From Flavimarina sp. Hel_I_48 (GTDB lineage: Bacteria; Bacteroidota; Bacteroidia; Flavobacteriales; Flavobacteriaceae): a stretch of DNA of 64,000 bases. Numbering within the stretch: the stretch's first letter is position 1; each line of letters opens with the position of its first letter. Positions 6,321-62,747 of this stretch are shown one piece after another. The position numbers were made by a program, and so were the translations under genes. The notes beneath the pieces were generated by a model. That model was not told where the DNA came from and ran no database searches. It was given only the letters and a program-made list of their open reading frames with translations. The DNA lies in the NCBI RefSeq assembly GCF_000733945.1, contig NZ_JPOL01000002.1:1551001-1615000 (forward strand), in the 5' to 3' direction.

Positions 6321-6899
6321 ATGAAAATAGGTCTTTTTTTTGGCACTTTTAATCCCATTCACATAGGGCATCTCATTATTGCAAACCATATCGCAGAATA
6401 TGGGGACCTGGACAAGGTCTGGCTCGTGATCACCCCGCACAACCCTTTTAAGAAAAAGAGCAGCCTGCTCAACGATCACCACCGCCATCAGCTCGTGATC
6501 GAAGCCGTAGAAGATTACCCCAAACTTGAACCAAGCACGATAGAATTCAATCTTCCGCAGCCTAATTATACCGTAAATACGCTAGTGCATTTACAGGAAA
6601 AATATCCTGAATATACCTTTTGCCCCATTATGGGTGAGGACAACCTAAAAAGTCTTCATAAATGGAAAAACCATGAGGTCATCCTACAAAATCATGAAAT
6701 CCTGGTCTATCCCAGAATTTCTGAGGGTACGGTAAAACATCAATTTAAAGGTCATATCAAAATACAGGTGGTCAATGCACCTGTGGTCGAGATATCTTCT
6801 ACGTTTATTAGAAAAGCGATCGCAGAAGGCAAAAACTGTAAACCCCTGCTTCCAGAAAGAGTCTGGAAATATATTGACGAGATGCAGTTTTACAGGTAA
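6321..6899 (+). CDS. nadD: Nicotinate (nicotinamide) nucleotide adenylyltransferase
   Basis: It joins nicotinate mononucleotide and ATP to form deamido-NAD in NAD biosynthesis. The nucleotidyltransferase motif GTFNPIHIGH is at residues 8-17, and the family ISSTFIRKAI motif lies near residue 158. The length of 192 residues is normal. It is 14 bp after gmk and probably in the same transcript. Over a kilobase of non-coding repeat DNA follows its stop codon, with no obvious strong terminator immediately after it. Confidence 0.95.
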   Translation: MKIGLFFGTFNPIHIGHLIIANHIAEYGDLDKVWLVITPHNPFKKKSSLLNDHHRHQLVIEAVEDYPKLEPSTIEFNLPQPNYTVNTLVHLQEKYPEYTFCPIMGEDNLKSLHKWKNHEVILQNHEILVYPRISEGTVKHQFKGHIKIQVVNAPVVEISSTFIRKAIAEGKNCKPLLPERVWKYIDEMQFYR

Positions 6900-7112: not shown

Positions 7113-7860
7113 CGAATCTCGCGTTAGGGATTGAAGTGAAAATCCTTTTTGTGAGGCACGAGCAAAAAGATTGAAACAAAAAGCCCGACCCGCAGGGAAA
7201 CGCCCTAAACCAATAAAAAAATCATATTATTGAGCTACCACGAATCTCGCGTTAGGGATTGCAGCGAAAATCCTTTTTGTGAGGTATGAGCAAAAAGATT
7301 GAAACAAAAAGCCCGATCCGCAGGGAAACGCCCAAAAACGATTAAAAACCAAAGTATTAAGCTACAACGAATCTCGCGTTAGGGATTGAAGTGGAAATCC
7401 TTTTTGTGAGGTACGAGCAAAAAGATTGCAACAAAAAACCCTAACGCAGGGAAACGCCCTAAACCAATAAAAAAATCATATTATTGAGCTACCACGAATC
7501 TCGCGTTAGGGATTGAAGTGAAAATCCTTTTTGTGCGGTACGCGTAAAAAGATTGCAACAAAAAACCCGACCCCCAGGGAAACGCCCAAAAACAATAAAA
7601 AAACCAAATTATTAAGCTACAACGAATCTCGCGTTAGGGATTGAAGTGAAAATCCTTTTTGTGAGGTACGAGCAAAAAGATTGCAACAAAAAACCCGACC
7701 CGCAGGGTAACGCCCTAAACCAAAAAAAAATCAAAGTATTAAGCTACAACGAATCTCGCGTTAGGGATTGAAGTGGAAATCCTATTTGTGAGGAACGAGC
7801 AAAAAGATTGCAACGCAAAGCCCGACCCGCAGGGAAACGCCCAAAAACAACAAAAAACCC
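7113..7860 (+). repeat. Six tandem copies of a ~127-bp structured repeat (family B)
   Basis: Copies start at 7113, 7241, 7368, 7494, 7623 and 7750, so the period is 126-129 bp. Each has a conserved core of about 85-90 bp that opens with GCGTTAGGGATTG and closes with CAGGGAAACGCCC, then a variable A/T-rich linker ending in GAGCTAC or AAGCTAC. Inside the core, GCGTT at the start can pair with AACGC at the end, GGATT with AATCC, and CTTTTTG with CAAAAAG, so a multi-branched fold is possible. Three further copies occur in inverted orientation at 61434-62036. No open reading frame or transposase is associated. The rest of the gap (6900-7112 and 7861-7999) shows nothing I can name. Confidence 0.92.
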
Positions 7861-7999: not shown

Positions 8000-8476
8000 A
8001 TGAAAACTTCTATTGCATTAGACGTAAATGGCGAAGAAAAAGAAATAAATGTAAGTCCTGACACTCCCCTGCTCTATGTACTCAGGAACAACCTTCAACT
8101 CAACGGACCCAAATTTGGCTGTGGATTGGAACAATGTGGTGCCTGTTTTGTGCTTTTGGATGGAGAGGCGCAACCTTCGTGCAGGTTGCCCGTAAGTGCC
8201 GCCACTGGCAAAAAAATCACCACTTTAGAAGGTTTAGCCCATAAAAATGGCAAATTACATGTAGTTCAGGAAGCTTTTATTACTGAGCAGGCCGCGCAAT
8301 GCGGTTATTGCCTAAACGGATTAATCATGGGTTCTGTCGCGCTGCTCAACAAAAACAGTGCTCCCAGCACAGCGGAAATTAAAACCGCACTTGAAAAAAA
8401 CATATGTCGTTGCGGGGTACACACCCGTGCGATCAAAGCGGTAAAAAGGGCGGCGTCTCAGAAAAATCAGGATTGA
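8000..8476 (+). CDS. (2Fe-2S)-binding small subunit of a molybdenum hydroxylase (IorA/XdhC-like)
   Basis: The 158-residue protein has the two-cluster layout of the xanthine dehydrogenase family small subunit. An N-terminal plant-type ferredoxin domain carries Cys41, Cys46, Cys49 and Cys61 (C-x4-C-x2-C-x11-C). A C-terminal helical domain carries Cys101-x2-Cys104 and Cys136-x-Cys138 (CRC). It transfers electrons from the molybdopterin subunit. It has no signal peptide, but the partner gene 2 bp downstream encodes a twin-arginine signal, so the small subunit is probably exported as a passenger in the folded complex. No cytochrome c or FAD subunit gene is adjacent, so the electron acceptor is not apparent. 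Confidence 0.92.
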   Translation: MKTSIALDVNGEEKEINVSPDTPLLYVLRNNLQLNGPKFGCGLEQCGACFVLLDGEAQPSCRLPVSAATGKKITTLEGLAHKNGKLHVVQEAFITEQAAQCGYCLNGLIMGSVALLNKNSAPSTAEIKTALEKNICRCGVHTRAIKAVKRAASQKNQD

Positions 8477-8477
8477 T

Positions 8478-10664
8478 ATGCAAAAGAAACGAAGAACATT
8501 CATTAAACAATTGGGCTGTGTGGGTATAGGATTTAGTATTGCCCCTACTCTTCTTTTTGCCGAAAACAACGCAGCAGACAACATCTGTGGCGCCATAATC
8601 GCTAACGACGATGCCATCAACGCGTGGTTAAAAGTGCTTGAAAATGGTAAAATCGAAATATTTACCGGGAAAATGGAACTGGGACAGGGCATACGCATTG
8701 CAGTTGCCCAGGTCGCTGCAGAAGAACTGAACACTGATCCCGAAAACATTAGTGTAAATCTGGCTGAAACAGGAATTACACCAGATGAAGGATATACCGC
8801 GGGAAGCAATTCCATCGTTTCTTCTGCAATGGCAGTTAGAAAGGCCGCAGCGTCTGCACGTGAAGTTTTACTTACACTTGCAGCAGAAAAATTAAGTACT
8901 GAAAAAAGCAGTCTAAGCTTAGAAAATGGCCACGTAATCCAAGGAACTCAAAAAGTAAGCTTTAGCACGATCCTCAACGGGAAACAATTCAACCAAAAAT
9001 TAGATCCTGAGGTCAAAATACAGGCAAAAAAGACTAATAAATGGGTTGGAAAGCCAGTTCCCAGAAAAGATATAAGCGCCATGGTAACCGGGCAACATAC
9101 GTATGTGCAGGACCTGCGTTTCCCTAATATGGTGCACGCCCGTATCCTTAGGCCAAAAGCCTACAACGCTGCACTAAATGCTTTGGACGCCAATTTTGTA
9201 ACCAGTGCGGAGGGATTTTTAAAACTGGTGCGCATTGGTAGTTTTGTGGGCGTGATCGCCGAAGAGGAATACCAGGCCATAAAAATGCGGGAGCAGTTGA
9301 ACCGCAGGGCAAAATGGGACATAAAGGAAACGTTACCCACAAAAACCAATTTAAAGAACTATATAAAAAACCTCCCCACCGACTCAAAAACGGATGAAAA
9401 TAAGGGGAATTCGGCAGAAATTATAGATAAATCAGGGATTAAACATTCCGCTGCATATAGCAAACCTTATGTTATGCACGCCGCAAATGGCCCTTCGTGT
9501 GCTGTAGCTTTTTATCAGGATGACAAGCTTGAAATATGGAGCCATACACAAGGTGTATATCCTCTCAGAAAGACGCTTTCCACCCTTCTTGAACTTCCTG
9601 AAATCAACATTCATGTAAAAGGAATTCCCGGTTCGGGTTGTTATGGGCACAACGGTGCAGATGATGTTGCGGCAGAAGCGGCGCTCCTGGCTCTTGAATA
9701 TCCTGGCAAGCATGTGCGCCTGCAATGGATGAGGGATGATGAGCACGGCTGGGAGCCTTATGGAACTGCCATGCTTATGGAACTCAAAGCCGGACTCGCA
9801 AAAGATGGAACGATAGAAGGCTGGCAATATGATCTGTGGTCTGATGCACATAGTACCCGCCCGGGCGGCAATCCCGAAAATTTACTTCCCGCGCGGTATC
9901 TCGATAGAGGTTACGGCGCGGCAGAAGGCGGTTTTAGGGGCGGAGCCATACGCAATGCCTTGCCCTATTATGATCTGCCAAACATAAAAAACAACTCTCA
10001 CATCTTTCGGGGTCCATTGCGTACTTCTGCGCTTCGCGGTCTGGGAGCTTACGCCAATATTTTTGCCATCGAATGTTTTATGGATGAACTGGCGGAAAAA
10101 TCTTCCATTGACCCGGTTGTTTTTCGATTGAACCACCTCAGTGATGTTCGTGCGAAAGATTGCCTTTCGCGACTGCGGGAAAATACCCAAAAACCGGAAC
10201 TGGCAGAAAATGAAGGTTTGGGATTTGCCTTTTCCCGTTATAAAAATTCAGCCGCCTATTGTAGTGTTGCCGCACATGTTCATGTAAATTCCAAGACGGG
10301 TTCTGTTCAGGTAAAAAAAATGTGGGCGGTTATTGATGCGGGCGAAACCATAAACCCTGACGGATTAAAAAACCAGACGGAGGGCGGCATGATACAATCT
10401 GCTAGTTGGGCGCTAAAAGAAAAGGTTCTTTTTGATGAAAATCATATCACGAGCCTGGACTGGGAAACGTATCCCATTTTCCGATTTCCCGATATTCCCG
10501 AAGTGGAAGTGGAAATTATAGACCGACCAGAAGAACCGCCACTTGGTGCTGGCGAGGCCGCGCAAGGGCCAGCTACGGCAGCGGTTATCAATGCGATTTG
10601 GGATGCTACCGGAATTAGAATTAGGGATTTACCAGTGAAAAAAGAGGATTTGGTACGTGTTTAG
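8478..10664 (+). CDS. Tat-exported molybdopterin-binding subunit, xanthine dehydrogenase family (IorB-like)
   Basis: This 728-residue protein opens with a twin-arginine signal (KKRRTFIKQLG, residues 3-13, then a hydrophobic segment ending near AEN). The MELGQG motif near residue 71 and the C-terminal GAGEAAQGPA motif, whose Glu at about residue 693 is the expected catalytic base, place it in the single-polypeptide IorB-type large subunits. It should be periplasmic, hydroxylating or dehydrogenating an aldehyde, N-heterocycle or sugar-like substrate; the sequence alone does not decide which. It forms a two-gene operon with the iron-sulfur subunit and converges on a DUF1080 gene only 13 bp away. 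Maturation would require molybdenum cofactor genes not present here. Confidence 0.9.
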   Translation: MQKKRRTFIKQLGCVGIGFSIAPTLLFAENNAADNICGAIIANDDAINAWLKVLENGKIEIFTGKMELGQGIRIAVAQVAAEELNTDPENISVNLAETGITPDEGYTAGSNSIVSSAMAVRKAAASAREVLLTLAAEKLSTEKSSLSLENGHVIQGTQKVSFSTILNGKQFNQKLDPEVKIQAKKTNKWVGKPVPRKDISAMVTGQHTYVQDLRFPNMVHARILRPKAYNAALNALDANFVTSAEGFLKLVRIGSFVGVIAEEEYQAIKMREQLNRRAKWDIKETLPTKTNLKNYIKNLPTDSKTDENKGNSAEIIDKSGIKHSAAYSKPYVMHAANGPSCAVAFYQDDKLEIWSHTQGVYPLRKTLSTLLELPEINIHVKGIPGSGCYGHNGADDVAAEAALLALEYPGKHVRLQWMRDDEHGWEPYGTAMLMELKAGLAKDGTIEGWQYDLWSDAHSTRPGGNPENLLPARYLDRGYGAAEGGFRGGAIRNALPYYDLPNIKNNSHIFRGPLRTSALRGLGAYANIFAIECFMDELAEKSSIDPVVFRLNHLSDVRAKDCLSRLRENTQKPELAENEGLGFAFSRYKNSAAYCSVAAHVHVNSKTGSVQVKKMWAVIDAGETINPDGLKNQTEGGMIQSASWALKEKVLFDENHITSLDWETYPIFRFPDIPEVEVEIIDRPEEPPLGAGEAAQGPATAAVINAIWDATGIRIRDLPVKKEDLVRV

Positions 10665-59102: not shown

Positions 59103-61001
59103 ATGAGCGATGCCATTAAGCATGAGTGTGGTATATCAGTAATACGCCTACTGAAGCCTTTAGAATATTATAAGGAAAAATATGGGAGCGCCTTTTACGG
59201 TGTGAACAAAATGTACCTTATGATGGAAAAGCAACATAACCGTGGTCAGGACGGTGCTGGCTTTGCAAGTATAAAGTTAGATACTGAACCTGGGGAACGG
59301 TACATAAGCAGGCAGCGCTCTGTTGCCCAGCAGCCCATACAGGATATTTTTGCGCAGATCAATTCGCGCATCAATGAAACCCTTGCTGAACATCCTGAAT
59401 ATGCAGATAATGTAGCCCTTCAGAAAAAGCATGTTCCCTATATAGGCGAACTTTTGCTGGGCCATGTACGCTACGGAACCTTCGGAAAAAACAGTGTGGA
59501 AAGCGTTCACCCGTTTTTGCGCCAGAACAACTGGATGCACCGTAACCTTATTGTGGCCGGTAACTTTAATATGACCAATGTTCACCAACTCTTTGATAAG
59601 TTGGTAGAACTGGGTCAACATCCCAAAGAAAAGGCAGATACCATTACCGTAATGGAAAAAATAGGCCATTTTCTGGATGATGCAGTAGCTAAACTTTACA
59701 AAAAGCTAAAAAAAGAAGGATATTCAAAGCAGCAGGCCACCCCGCTTATCGCAGAGCGCCTCAACATAAAAAAAATATTGAGAAAAGCCGCCCGTGACTG
59801 GGATGGCGGTTACGCCATGGCCGGTCTTTTAGGCCACGGCGATTCATTTGTACTGCGTGATCCCGCAGGCATACGCCCCGTTTATTATTACCGCGATGAA
59901 GAAGTAGTCGTTGTAGCGAGCGAACGTCCTGTTATTCAAACCGTATTCAATGCGCCTTTTGAAGAAGTACAGGAACTGGATCCTGGACATGCGCTCATTA
60001 TTAAGAAAAGCGGGGAATCTTCCATAGAAGAAATACAGGTGCCGCTTGAAAGAAAAGCATGTTCTTTTGAGCGTATTTATTTTTCCCGAGGAAGCGATGC
60101 CGAAATTTATCAAGAGCGTAAAGAATTGGGTCGTTTATTAATGCCCGAAGTTCTTAAAGAAATAAACCACGATACGCAAAACACCGTATTTAGTTTTATA
60201 CCAAACACCGCAGAAACTTCTTTCTACGGAATGGTCGAAGCGGCGCAGGTAGAACTTGACGAACAAAAAACCGCGGAAATTCTGGCCAACAGGGATACCC
60301 TGGATAAAAAAGGGCTACAGAACATCCTTAACCTCAAACTGCGTACAGAAAAAATCGCCATTAAGGATGTAAAATTACGCACTTTTATTACTGAAGACAG
60401 CAGCCGCGACGATCTTGTGGCCCACGTATATGATGTCACCTATGGCGTGGTAAAACCTACAGACAATCTTGTTATTATTGATGACAGTATTGTGAGGGGT
60501 ACAACCTTGAAGAAAAGTATTATCAAAATGCTTTCACGCCTTAATCCCAAAAAGATCGTGGTGGTATCTTCTGCACCGCAAATACGCTATCCTGATTGTT
60601 ATGGTATAGATATGGCAAAATTGCAGGATTTTATTGCATTCCGCGCAGCGGTAGATCTTTTACGGGATAATGACCAACTCGATACTATAAAACGCGTTTA
60701 TGATAAATGCTGTGAACAGGTAGCATATAAAGATAAAGATGTAAAAAATTACGTCAAAGAAATCTACGATCCCTTCACAGATGAACAGATCTCTGCTAAA
60801 ATCGCCCAACTACTGAAAACTGAAAACAATGGTCCAGAGGTAAGCGTTATTTATCAGAAGGTAGAGAATTTACACAAAGCCTGTCCTAAAAATCTAGGCG
60901 ACTGGTATTTTACGGGAGATTACCCTACCCACGGAGGTAATAGGGTAGTTAACAGAGCTTTTATGAATTATTATGAAGGAAACGATAACCGAGCCTATTA
61001 A
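59103..61001 (+). CDS. purF: Amidophosphoribosyltransferase, long Bacteroidota form
   Basis: It starts purine synthesis by making phosphoribosylamine from PRPP and glutamine. The N-terminal nucleophile is Cys9 after a short leader (MSDAIKHE, then CGISV). The glutaminase part includes QHNRGQDGAGFA and GHVRYGTFG, and the phosphoribosyltransferase part VIIDDSIVRGTT. At 632 residues it is longer than the classical 470-510 residue enzyme; there are insertions around residues 80-110 and in the C-terminal third, which I believe are typical of a Bacteroidota class. A typical phylum-level variant is likelier than a new enzyme. Confidence 0.87.
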   Translation: MSDAIKHECGISVIRLLKPLEYYKEKYGSAFYGVNKMYLMMEKQHNRGQDGAGFASIKLDTEPGERYISRQRSVAQQPIQDIFAQINSRINETLAEHPEYADNVALQKKHVPYIGELLLGHVRYGTFGKNSVESVHPFLRQNNWMHRNLIVAGNFNMTNVHQLFDKLVELGQHPKEKADTITVMEKIGHFLDDAVAKLYKKLKKEGYSKQQATPLIAERLNIKKILRKAARDWDGGYAMAGLLGHGDSFVLRDPAGIRPVYYYRDEEVVVVASERPVIQTVFNAPFEEVQELDPGHALIIKKSGESSIEEIQVPLERKACSFERIYFSRGSDAEIYQERKELGRLLMPEVLKEINHDTQNTVFSFIPNTAETSFYGMVEAAQVELDEQKTAEILANRDTLDKKGLQNILNLKLRTEKIAIKDVKLRTFITEDSSRDDLVAHVYDVTYGVVKPTDNLVIIDDSIVRGTTLKKSIIKMLSRLNPKKIVVVSSAPQIRYPDCYGIDMAKLQDFIAFRAAVDLLRDNDQLDTIKRVYDKCCEQVAYKDKDVKNYVKEIYDPFTDEQISAKIAQLLKTENNGPEVSVIYQKVENLHKACPKNLGDWYFTGDYPTHGGNRVVNRAFMNYYEGNDNRAY

Positions 61002-61168: not shown

Positions 61169-61920
61169 GTGCCAAATCGTAATGGGTGGCGAGCAGCTAC
61201 AATTAAGCTCTATATAAAAATGCCGTGCGAGCCGCTTAGCCAATACCTCAAGATCTTTCCACCTTTTTTTGTGCCAAATCGTAATGGGTGGCGAGCAGCT
61301 ACAATTAAGCTCTATATAACAGATGCCGTGCGAGCCGCTTAGCCCAACCTCAAGATCTTTCCACCTTTTCTTTGTGCCAAATCGTAATGGGTGGCGAACT
61401 TATATAATTACTTTTCGGTTCTTTTATTGTTTTGGGCGTTTCCCTGCGGGTCGGGCTTTACGTTGTAATCTTTTTGCTCGTACCTCACAAAAAGGATTTT
61501 CGCTACAATCCCTAACGCAAAATTAGTTTCTTGGTCATAGAGTAGTTTTTTTGAACCATTTCTCTAGGTCTAAAGTATTTAATTTGGGGCTGCACTATAC
61601 TCCATATCTTCAGATCTTTCCACCTTTTTTTTGTGCCAAATCGTAATGGGTGGCGAACTCTTTAATTGCTCTTCAATTCATTTATTGTTATTGGGCGTTT
61701 CCCTGCGGGTCGGGCTTTACGTTGTAATCTTTTTGCTCGTACCTCACAAAAAGGATTTTCGCTACAATCCCTAACGCAAAATTAGTTTCTTGGTCATAGA
61801 GTAGTTTTTTTGAACCATTTCTCTAGGTCTAAAGTATTTAATTTGGGGCTGCACTATACTCCATATCTTCAGATCTTTCCACCTTTTTTTTGTGCCAAAT
61901 CGTAATGGGTGGCGAACTCT
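61149..61920 (+). repeat. Five copies of repeat family A
   Basis: A segment starting GATCTTTCCACC, with a T run, GTGCCAAATCG and TAATGGGTGGCGA, begins at 61149, 61252, 61354, 61613 and 61872. The first three are spaced 103 and 102 bp and share GCAGCTACAATTAAGCTC and GCCGTGCGAGCCGCTTAGCC; the last three are spaced 259 bp and are interleaved with family B copies. No protein-coding role is evident. Confidence 0.88.
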
Positions 61921-62036
61921 TTAATTGCTCTTCAATTCATTTATTGTTATTGGGCGTTTCCCTGCGGGTCGGGCTTTACGTTGTAATCTTTTTGCTCGTA
62001 CCTCACAAAAAGGATTTTCGCTACAATCCCTAACGT
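61434..62036 (-). repeat. Three inverted copies of structured repeat family B
   Basis: Copies at 61434-61518, 61693-61777 and 61952-62036 have a strict period of 259 bp. On the minus strand each reads GCGTTAGGGATTG...CAGGGAAACGCCC like the six copies at 7113-7860, with the same GGATT/AATCC and CTTTTTG/CAAAAAG arms. The one nearest the sod gene has ACGTT instead of GCGTT at its outer end. The two right-hand 259-bp units are almost identical, pointing to recent duplication. Sequence before 61140 and at 62037-62083 shows no gene. Confidence 0.92.
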
Positions 62037-62083
62037 AAATTTCGTTTCCAGATAATAATTTGAATAAAAAGCCTGGAAGAAAT

Positions 62084-62138: not shown

Positions 62139-62747
62139 TTATTTATTATTCGCAAAACGCTTAGAAACTTCTTGCCAGTTTACTACTTCCCAAAAAGCTT
62201 CAATATATTTAGGACGCTCATTTTGATAATTTAAGTAATACGCATGTTCCCAAACATCAAGACCTAAAATAGGTGTCCCGCCACAACCAGTATCTGGCAT
62301 TAGTGGATTGTCTTGATTTGGTGTAGAGCAGATTTCCACTTTACCACCTTCCTGAACACACAACCACGCCCATCCTGAACCAAATCTTGTTCCAGCAGCT
62401 TCGGTAAATTTAGATTTGAAATCTTCAAAGGAACCAAAAGCCTTATCGATAGCGGTTGCAAGATCGCCTTCAGGCTTTCCACCACCATTTGGGCTCATTA
62501 CTTCCCAAAAAAGGCTATGGTTGTAAAAACCACCACCGTTGTTACGTACTGCTTTGTTTTGCATATCCAGGTTCCCAAGGATATTTTCAATTGATTTTCC
62601 TTCTAGATCTGTTCCTTCAATTGCAGCATTCAATTTTTTTGTATATCCGCCATGGTGCTTGTCATGATGTATTTCCATGGTCTTTGCATCAATATGCGGG
62701 GTTAGCGCGTCAAATGCGTATTTTAATTTCGGTAATTCAAAAGCCAT
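62139..62747 (-). CDS. Superoxide dismutase, Fe/Mn family
   Basis: It disproportionates superoxide. The 202-residue protein carries the four metal ligands expected: His27 (MEIHHDKHH), His77 (FYNHSLFW), and the Asp and His of LDVWEHAYY. The sequence [17 protein letters not shown] at the N-terminus is standard. Fe versus Mn preference cannot be decided from the pattern with confidence. It is divergent from the helicase gene; a -7 box is 36 bp upstream. Confidence 0.95.

What the first reader, a model, noticed from the sequence alone, without database searches (positions are those of the whole stretch)
7113..7860. Structured repeat family with a possible cloverleaf fold, nine copies in the window
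Every core copy keeps three potential stems in nested order: an outer GCGTT/AACGC, then GGATT/AATCC with an 8-nt loop, then CTTTTTG/CAAAAAG with an 11-nt loop (TGAGGTACGAG), with a small CCC/GGG hairpin near the end. This is seen directly. In copy 4 the loop changes at two places at once (GAG to GCG on both sides), giving GCG-GTA-CGC, an added local stem. Such repeats could be a mobile non-autonomous element, a protein or RNA binding site, or a source of small RNA. I know of no named function. The element is conserved where drift would be expected in non-coding DNA.
Basis: partly seen in the sequence, partly recalled or inferred. Interest (0 to 1): 0.72.

Follow-up and report, generated by a model that had tools for sequence, protein, structure and literature searches.

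The report
Known Flavo-1 repeat, amplified here
The nine structured repeats are copies of Flavo-1, an already catalogued but unexplained hairpin-forming element of flavobacteria that has multiplied in this genome like mobile DNA, although some old copies in relatives may be preserved by selection.

Summary
The repeat is real and known: 9 of 9 window copies match Rfam RF01705 (Flavo-1) above its cut-off; the genome holds 82 matches, 71 over it. The fold is a three-way junction, not a cloverleaf. Five core pairs and the outer stem covary across relatives.

Best reading: a non-coding, probably mobile hairpin repeat resembling REPs or MITEs. Two G000 sites lack Flavo-1 in 12 of 12 same-genus genomes, but only 11 and 3 of those are cleanly empty. 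Copies here favour convergent gene ends; relatives do not show this. No promoter motif precedes copies, and no transposase partner was found.

Against plain selfish DNA: in relatives a shorter form sits antisense between operon genes at the same sites in several genera. Orthologous cores are more alike (0.925) than non-orthologous ones (0.803), and one base pair differs on both sides. Some copies may have acquired a function. RNA versus DNA, and the mechanism of spread, remain open.

The parts
7116..7194 (+). Flavo-1 copy 1 (Rfam model extent; outer-stem 3' arm follows at about 7195-7205)
   Evidence: RF01705, 53.0 bits
7244..7322 (+). Flavo-1 copy 2
   Evidence: RF01705, 48.9 bits
7371..7449 (+). 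Flavo-1 copy 3, with a changed 3' part
   Evidence: RF01705, 44.4 bits
7498..7576 (+). Flavo-1 copy 4, loop TGCGGTACGCG
   Evidence: RF01705, 54.9 bits
7626..7704 (+). Flavo-1 copy 5
   Evidence: RF01705, 49.6 bits
7753..7831 (+). Flavo-1 copy 6
   Evidence: RF01705, 48.4 bits
7111..7864 (+). tandem array: six units of 127-128 nt (element plus A-rich 3' tail), lying between the genes 6321-6899 and 8000-8476, both on the + strand
   Evidence: direct repeats D1 and D2; gene context
61445..61523 (-). Flavo-1 copy 7
   Evidence: RF01705, 51.8 bits
61704..61782 (-). Flavo-1 copy 8
   Evidence: RF01705, 51.8 bits
61963..62040 (-). Flavo-1 copy 9; the three form a second array of period 259 between convergent genes (59103-61001 + and 62139-62747 -)
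   Evidence: RF01705, 50.7 bits; context

Best explanation
The repeats are Flavo-1 (RF01705) elements. I think the family is a non-coding, hairpin-forming mobile DNA repeat that works like REPs or MITEs: it is carried by an enzyme acting in trans that recognises the folded strand, inserts between genes, and is tolerated where it does little damage. In this genome one variety, with an outer stem and a small third hairpin, has multiplied to 71-82 detected copies, and some copies then duplicated in place to give arrays such as the two in the window. Shown: family membership, copy number, absence at two sites in sister species, conserved fold, a bias to convergent gene ends in this genome, local arrays. 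Inferred: that spread is by transposition of folded single-stranded DNA and that a trans-acting enzyme exists.
For: Membership 9 of 9. 82 matches in the own genome, control 0 of 14 genomes. Sites C2:2618342 and C2:2622352 carry Flavo-1 in G000, while none of the 12 orthologous stretches from 12 same-genus genomes has a match over the gathering score. At the first site the stretch between two anchors is 204 nt in G000 and 45 nt or less in 11 of 12 (G007: 513). At the second it is 284 nt in G000 and 11 nt or less in 3 of 12 (G002, G005, G012); the other nine have 673-735 nt of other sequence. Fold: five core pairs beat 1000 of 1000 shuffles (two further pairs hardly vary and say nothing); 19 of 23 relatives' form-B copies, and 9 of 10 with an altered outer 5-mer, carry its exact complement, control 0.06. 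The Rfam strand folds better than its complement in 47 of 62, 34 of 49 and 19 of 26 distinct copies with RNA energies and in 59 of 62, 41 of 49 and 20 of 26 with DNA energies; apical G.U pairs are 32 against 13 in relatives (p 0.007). Of 37 G000 gaps holding an element (7 of 44 sites dropped from this count), 14 are convergent and 3 divergent, against 42 and 62 of 270 gaps without (Fisher p 0.002 and 0.051). No TAnnTTTG promoter motif within 60 nt upstream of 44 own sites; 6 of 79 in relatives against 4.6 in shuffles.
Against: No partner enzyme found: the only Y1_Tnp match in G000 is a fragment below the cut-off, 17 of 38 Flavo-1-bearing genomes have no Y1_Tnp match, and no protein recurs within the fetched G000 loci, about 5 kb either side of sites (more than 55% identity), apart from one short pair. 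No target-site duplication could be defined; sister species are only 64-80% identical there. Lagging-strand bias is weak: 25 of 39 C2 sites, p 0.11 (counted by hand). The gene-end bias is not general: relatives' occupied gaps are 50 codirectional, 5 convergent, 5 divergent against 131, 27, 40 unoccupied, and 4 of 16 further copies sit in divergent gaps. Orthologous operon copies keep their core for a long time, which selfish copies should not.
Confidence: 0.55

Rival explanations
1. Resident functional element: Flavo-1 copies at fixed places act locally, for example as a hairpin in DNA or in an antisense or intercistronic transcript that adjusts expression of neighbouring operon genes; amplification in some genomes is secondary.
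For: Antisense element upstream of hppD in 9 of 13 same-genus genomes (the end of hmgA was seen directly before it in 7) and between hmgA and hppD in G029, another genus. At hppD mean core identity is 0.94 against 0.47 at fourfold sites in 28 pairs of 8 genomes (my pattern fixed about half of the core). Without that pattern, core 0.91-0.95, apical loop 0.06-0.80 and 5' flank 0.60-0.77 at five orthologous loci, with a two-sided difference (C-G, A-T) at pair 10-67 of phoH-purC. Control: 30 orthologous pairs mean 0.925, 1254 non-orthologous pairs between genomes 0.803; in 15 of 15 testable comparisons the orthologous pair beats the mean and in 14 the maximum of non-orthologous pairs of the same two genomes. 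sufD-[element]-sufS in G018, G029 and, sufS by eye, G160. In the shorter form 29 of 37 copies have a stop codon on the 3' side, and 27 are antisense to both neighbours against 5 sense.
Against: Non-orthologous preserved copies are also alike (0.80), so much of the core identity is a family property, and the copies were found because they match the model. In 16 further copies, mostly from genus g45, only 9 have the stop codon on the 3' side (8 antisense to both neighbours, 3 sense, 4 divergent, 1 with no upstream gene). Sites are empty in other genera (G020, G021, G043 at hppD; G017 at sufS); the hppD copies of G017 and G018 have decayed (by eye; no Flavo-1 hit at E up to 1). The operons share no theme. 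G000 copies with a changed outer 5-mer are not compensated.
Confidence: 0.27
2. Flavo-1 is a family of transcribed small RNAs, as Rfam files it (Gene; sRNA).
For: The Rfam strand is the better-folding one in most copies and has more G.U pairs in the apical stem; strong covariation.
Against: No promoter motif at the 5' side. In core pairs G.U is not in clear excess over A.C (20 against 13 of 735 cells). In Flavobacterium psychrophilum, hits lay in sense or antisense of transcripts and many were not in transcripts (PMC9723704, passages). Orientation to neighbours in G000 is not consistent: 11 sense and 10 antisense to both neighbours.
Confidence: 0.12
3. A simple local duplication without further meaning.
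For: Both window groups are tandem arrays with their own unit lengths, 127-128 and 259.
Against: 82 dispersed matches in the genome and matches in 38 of 60 genomes, with compensatory changes.
Confidence: 0.01

Closest known systems
Flavo-1 RNA, Rfam RF01705 (Weinberg et al. 2010, PMC2864571; table row and passages seen)
   Same: Sequence, long imperfect hairpin, taxon (Bacteroidetes). Every copy in the window is a member.
   Different: The Rfam model (76 positions) covers the long hairpin. In this genome the unit adds an outer stem GCGTT/AACGC, a third small hairpin and conserved flanks to about -22 and +15 to +25.
REP: GTAG and CGTC palindromic repeats, GTAG ones with RAYT transposases (PMC3733652, abstract start and passages seen)
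   Same: Short, dispersed, palindromic, mostly between genes; CGTC repeats also lack a known dedicated transposase.
   Different: REPs are 20-40 bp with a terminal tetranucleotide. Flavo-1 is about 65-145 nt with structured internal G.A mismatches, and no RAYT association was seen.
Bacterial MITEs (recalled)
   Same: Non-autonomous, about 100-150 nt, dispersed, intergenic.
   Different: No convincing terminal inverted repeats or target-site duplication shown here.

Membership tests
Flavo-1 (RF01705) | Covariance-model score at or above the gathering score of 42 bits | tested here: met
   9 of 9 window copies, 44.4-54.9 bits
Flavo-1 (RF01705) | Hairpin with covarying pairs as in the Rfam structure | tested here: met
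   Pairs 9-68, 10-67, 14-63, 18-59, 19-58: 0 of 1000 shuffles reach the observed pairing; pairs 11-66 and 13-64 hardly vary
Small RNA gene | Own promoter and discrete transcript | tested here: inconclusive
   No promoter motif upstream; transcripts not testable here
REP elements | Dispersed palindromic intergenic repeat | tested here: met
   82 matches at 42-44 sites depending on how arrays are merged
REP elements | Associated RAYT (Y1) transposase, REPs flanking its gene (a GTAG-type feature) | tested here: not met
   G000 has one sub-threshold fragment; 17 of 38 Flavo-1 genomes have no Y1_Tnp match
MITE | Terminal inverted repeats and target-site duplication (recalled definition) | tested here: inconclusive
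   Flank profile shows no clear terminal repeat; sites too diverged for a duplication to be seen
MITE | Presence/absence differences between relatives | tested here: met
   Two sites examined: no Flavo-1 over the gathering score in 12 orthologous stretches; cleanly short in 11 of 12 and 3 of 12

The most novel reading that the evidence does not exclude
Flavo-1 is a mobile hairpin of flavobacteria that has repeatedly been captured as a fixed antisense-strand element inside housekeeping operons (hmgA-hppD, sufD-sufS, phoH-purC, aroC-SDF), where selection keeps the single-strand fold while its apical loop drifts: a DNA or antisense-RNA control element with no named counterpart.
Probability: 0.25. 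Interest if true: 0.68.

Novelty: new member of a known kind. Interest (0 to 1): 0.42.

Why it matters
Flavo-1 is listed among abundant small-RNA families (PMC9029176, passages) and the papers seen give it no function. If it is mostly a mobile DNA hairpin, many 'sRNA' annotations in flavobacteria are misleading. If some copies were captured inside operons, orthologous occupied and empty sites such as hmgA-hppD give a direct experiment. The fold, a long helix with regular G.A mismatch blocks, is also an unusual target for whatever protein reads it.

Tried and rejected
Tried and dropped. (2) The complement strand as the real RNA: three examples (L131, L136, L150) folded as well or better on the complement with RNA energies (with DNA energies L131 and L136 were slightly better on the Rfam strand), but over all parsed copies the Rfam strand wins, so I dropped it. 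(3) Replication-strand bias: 25 of 39, not significant; the origin near C2 1.9 Mb is inferred from GC skew. (4) Promoter at the 5' side: none; a variant with a 3-nt spacer occurs in 3 of 44 own sites against 1.4 in shuffles. (5) A tRNA control for G.U counts was invalid because ARAGORN marks only standard pairs. (6) Insertion after intrinsic terminators for the shorter form looked striking by eye, but a simple test found an A-run plus hairpin in only 4 of 53 3' flanks, so it is not claimed. (7) A 190-nt repeat next to Flavo-1 in G048 turned out to be a separate family.

Limits of sampling: the 63 plus 16 copies from relatives are among the best-scoring listed, so they lean to well-preserved copies; one search scored at most 65 and at most 11 candidates per genome. 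Parsing losses: 8 of 145, 16 of 145, 15 of 161. The search patterns fix some positions (the AT at 12-13 and AG at 64-65; AG at 64-65 and ATCC; about half of the core), so invariance there is not evidence. One search used a wrong register for part of the copies and was replaced. One search failed at its last step and was replaced. One search dropped 7 of 82 copies without anchors. On re-reading I added the control, which weakened the selection argument; I lowered the resident-element rival from 0.30 to 0.27 and the novel case from 0.28 to 0.25.

Full report
What was checked. The region 7113-7860 holds six tandem units of 127-128 nt. A scan of the window against Rfam finds nine Flavo-1 (RF01705) matches over the gathering score and no other family: six here and three on the minus strand at 61445-62040. 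The whole genome (4.14 Mb, 4 contigs) has 82 matches at E <= 0.001, 71 over the cut-off, from 150 scored of 880 candidates; 14 control genomes have none. They form 42 or 44 sites depending on how arrays are merged, 32 of the copies being solitary.

Structure. In the Rfam structure the element is one long imperfect hairpin: three pairs, one mismatch, two pairs, three mismatches, two pairs, three mismatches, four pairs, then an A/T stem with a variable loop. In 105 distinct cores from 129 of 145 copies, pair 9-68 is G-C 65, C-G 24, A-T 9; pair 10-67 is G-C 77, C-G 16, T-A 7, A-T 2; pair 14-63 is T-A 82, A-T 15, G-C 2; pair 18-59 is G-C 83, A-T 12; pair 19-58 is T-A 40, C-G 40. Between them the mismatches 15.62 and 20.57 are G.A in 102 and 97 of 105 (positions 12, 13, 64 and 65 were partly fixed by my pattern). 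In 67 distinct cores of relatives none of 1000 shuffles reaches the observed pairing for these five pairs; pairs 11-66 and 13-64 hardly vary and say nothing. Sliding the partner by one column lowers the pairing, though pair 10-67 still reaches 0.84 at +1. Thermodynamic stability of window copies alone is unremarkable (31 and 15 of 200 shuffles fold as well).

Two forms. Relatives show a shorter form A (TAGCCCCGAT ... AGCGGGAAATAGCTCCTAA) and a form B (GCGTTAGGGAT ... AAAGCCCGACC ... GGGTAACGCCC), the form of this window. In form B the outer stem is real: 19 of 23 relatives' copies carry the exact complement of their own outer 5-mer, among them 9 of 10 whose 5-mer is not GCGTT, against 0.06 for other copies' 5-mers. 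By eye the small third hairpin covaries as well (for example ACCACGC/GCGTGGT). So form B is a three-way junction. In this genome 53 of 63 form-B copies have the complement, but none of the 7 listed with a changed outer 5-mer do (three of those seven are probably misread by the pattern, as their sequence still shows GCGTTAGGG). This is as expected of recent copies left to drift, on small numbers.

Which strand. Single examples folded better on the complement, so I tested all parsed copies. The Rfam strand is the more stable one in 47 of 62 own, 34 of 49 form A and 19 of 26 form B distinct copies with RNA energies, and in 59 of 62, 41 of 49 and 20 of 26 with DNA energies. G.U pairs in the apical stem are 35 against 9 (own) and 32 against 13 (relatives) (binomial p 0.0001 and 0.007, copies not independent). 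The Rfam strand is therefore probably the folded one, as RNA or as single-stranded DNA. In the core pairs G.U (20) is not in clear excess over A.C (13) of 735 cells.

Spread. Sequences around two G000 copies (L064) were compared with the orthologous stretches of the 12 other genomes held of the genus. Rfam finds no Flavo-1 over the gathering score in any of the 12 stretches and both copies in G000. At the first site the anchors are 204 nt apart in G000 and 45 nt or less in 11 of 12; G007 has 513 nt. At the second they are 284 nt apart in G000 and 11 nt or less in G002, G005 and G012; the other nine have 673-735 nt of different sequence, so they are not clean empty sites. Divergence (64-80% identity) is too high to read a target duplication. 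G000 gaps with an element are 14 convergent, 20 codirectional and 3 divergent, against 42, 166 and 62 without (37 of 44 sites counted; Fisher p 0.002 for convergent, 0.051 for divergent). With the looser count (20, 21, 3) the p values are 2e-5 and 0.015. In relatives the occupied gaps are 5 convergent, 50 codirectional and 5 divergent against 27, 131 and 40, so there the convergent bias is absent; of 16 further copies 4 are in divergent gaps. Site strand follows the lagging-strand direction in 25 of 39, p 0.11 (counted by hand). Arrays in this genome have unit lengths from about 113 to 259 nt or more (coordinates), so I read them as local duplications. One copy (C2:1943539) has its apical loop inverted as a block, which fits a DNA palindrome event.

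Partner. The genome has one Y1_Tnp match, an 89-aa open frame below the cut-off. Of 60 genomes, 38 have Flavo-1 and 24 have Y1_Tnp; 17 of the 38 have none. An all-against-all comparison of 866 open frames from the fetched G000 loci (more than 55% identity) found no recurring protein apart from one short pair. No partner is identified.

Resident copies. In relatives many form A copies lie antisense in operons. Of 37 such copies, 29 have the neighbour's stop codon on their 3' side and 27 are antisense to both neighbours against 5 sense (p 0.0008 and 0.0001 raw). The 16 further copies are weaker: 9 of 16 on the stop side, 8 antisense to both and 3 sense. Counting each locus once by my own judgement over both sets gives about 22 to 8, p 0.016. 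The same gene gap is occupied across genera: upstream of hppD in 9 of 13 genomes of the window's genus (G006 weakest at 49 bits), with the end of hmgA seen before it in 7, and hmgA-hppD in G029; sufD-sufS in G018 and G029 and in G160, where SufBD is by Pfam and sufS by eye; phoH-purC in G029 and G017; aroC-SDF in G029 and G036. Other genera have short empty gaps of 18-32 nt. In G001 only the end AGGGCTAG is left, and in G017 and G018 the hppD copy has decayed (by eye; no Flavo-1 hit for the latter two). At hppD, eight intact copies share a core identity of 0.94, against 0.47 at fourfold sites of the gene and 0.56 in the apical loop (28 pairs; my pattern fixed about half of the core). Without that pattern, five orthologous loci give core 0.91-0.95, apical loop 0.06-0.80 and 5' flank 0.60-0.77 (the flank may reach into the next gene). 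The needed control: 1254 pairs of non-orthologous form A copies between genomes average 0.803, 30 orthologous pairs 0.925; the orthologous pair beats the mean of the same two genomes in 15 of 15 and the maximum in 14 of 15 testable comparisons. So most of the core identity is a family property, with a consistent extra at orthologous sites. At phoH-purC the pair 10-67 is C-G in G029 and A-T in G017. These copies may be selected; because fourfold sites are near saturation, an unconstrained copy should have decayed, but copies were picked because they match. G010 and G011 hold only 3 and 2 matches, so conversion from other copies is an unlikely cause there.

Literature. Flavo-1 comes from a computational screen (Weinberg et al. 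2010, PMC2864571: table row and passages seen; marked y for RNA, n for cis-regulatory, Bacteroidetes). A transcriptome of Flavobacterium psychrophilum found hits in sense or antisense of transcripts, many outside them, and no clue to function (PMC9723704, passages seen). A 2022 review lists it among the most abundant families without a function (PMC9029176, passages seen). Whole-word 'Flavo-1' gives 3 papers and 'RF01705' 4; 'Flavo-1 RNA' gives none. PMC3765529 and PMC7682815 were seen in the listing only. In what I saw there is no description of resident operon copies or of recent insertion; subscription journals are not in the library.

Verdict. The finding is a correct sighting of a known, unexplained family. 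The most likely nature is a mobile hairpin repeat, perhaps with some captured copies. The open questions are the enzyme, and whether resident copies act.

Noticed in passing
L126, L125, L127-L129 (G048), upstream of Flavo-1: A separate repeat of about 190 nt (31 matches in G048 to a 360-nt query, many without the Flavo-1 part, most on contig C23 with some 1-kb spacings) precedes several Flavo-1 copies.
   Followed up: partly
L173:2730-3101 (G007): A 23S_rRNA_IVP (PF05635) gene sits between hmgA and hppD, the gap that carries Flavo-1 in other genomes; similar spacer sequence was seen by eye in G004 and G006.
   Followed up: partly
G000 C2:1943539 (L052): Copy with the apical loop inverted as a block (CTCGTTCCTCA for TGAGGAACGAG) between intact stem arms.
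   Followed up: no
G000 C2:457369, C2:664224, C2:2022267: Three copies carry an insert with a CTTCCGGGAGG- or CCTCCGGGAGG-type hairpin in the 5' half of the core.
   Followed up: no
L174 (G000 upstream of hppD): In G000 the frame that ends before hppD reads like hmgA with an extra proline-containing tail and GTAGGAGCTAAATAA, which may be a remnant of the element's end (by eye).
   Followed up: no
window 6321-6899 and 8000-10664: Genes beside the first array: a cytidylyltransferase-like gene upstream and a 2Fe-2S protein plus a molybdopterin-binding protein downstream (Pfam; xanthine dehydrogenase type is my reading).
   Followed up: no
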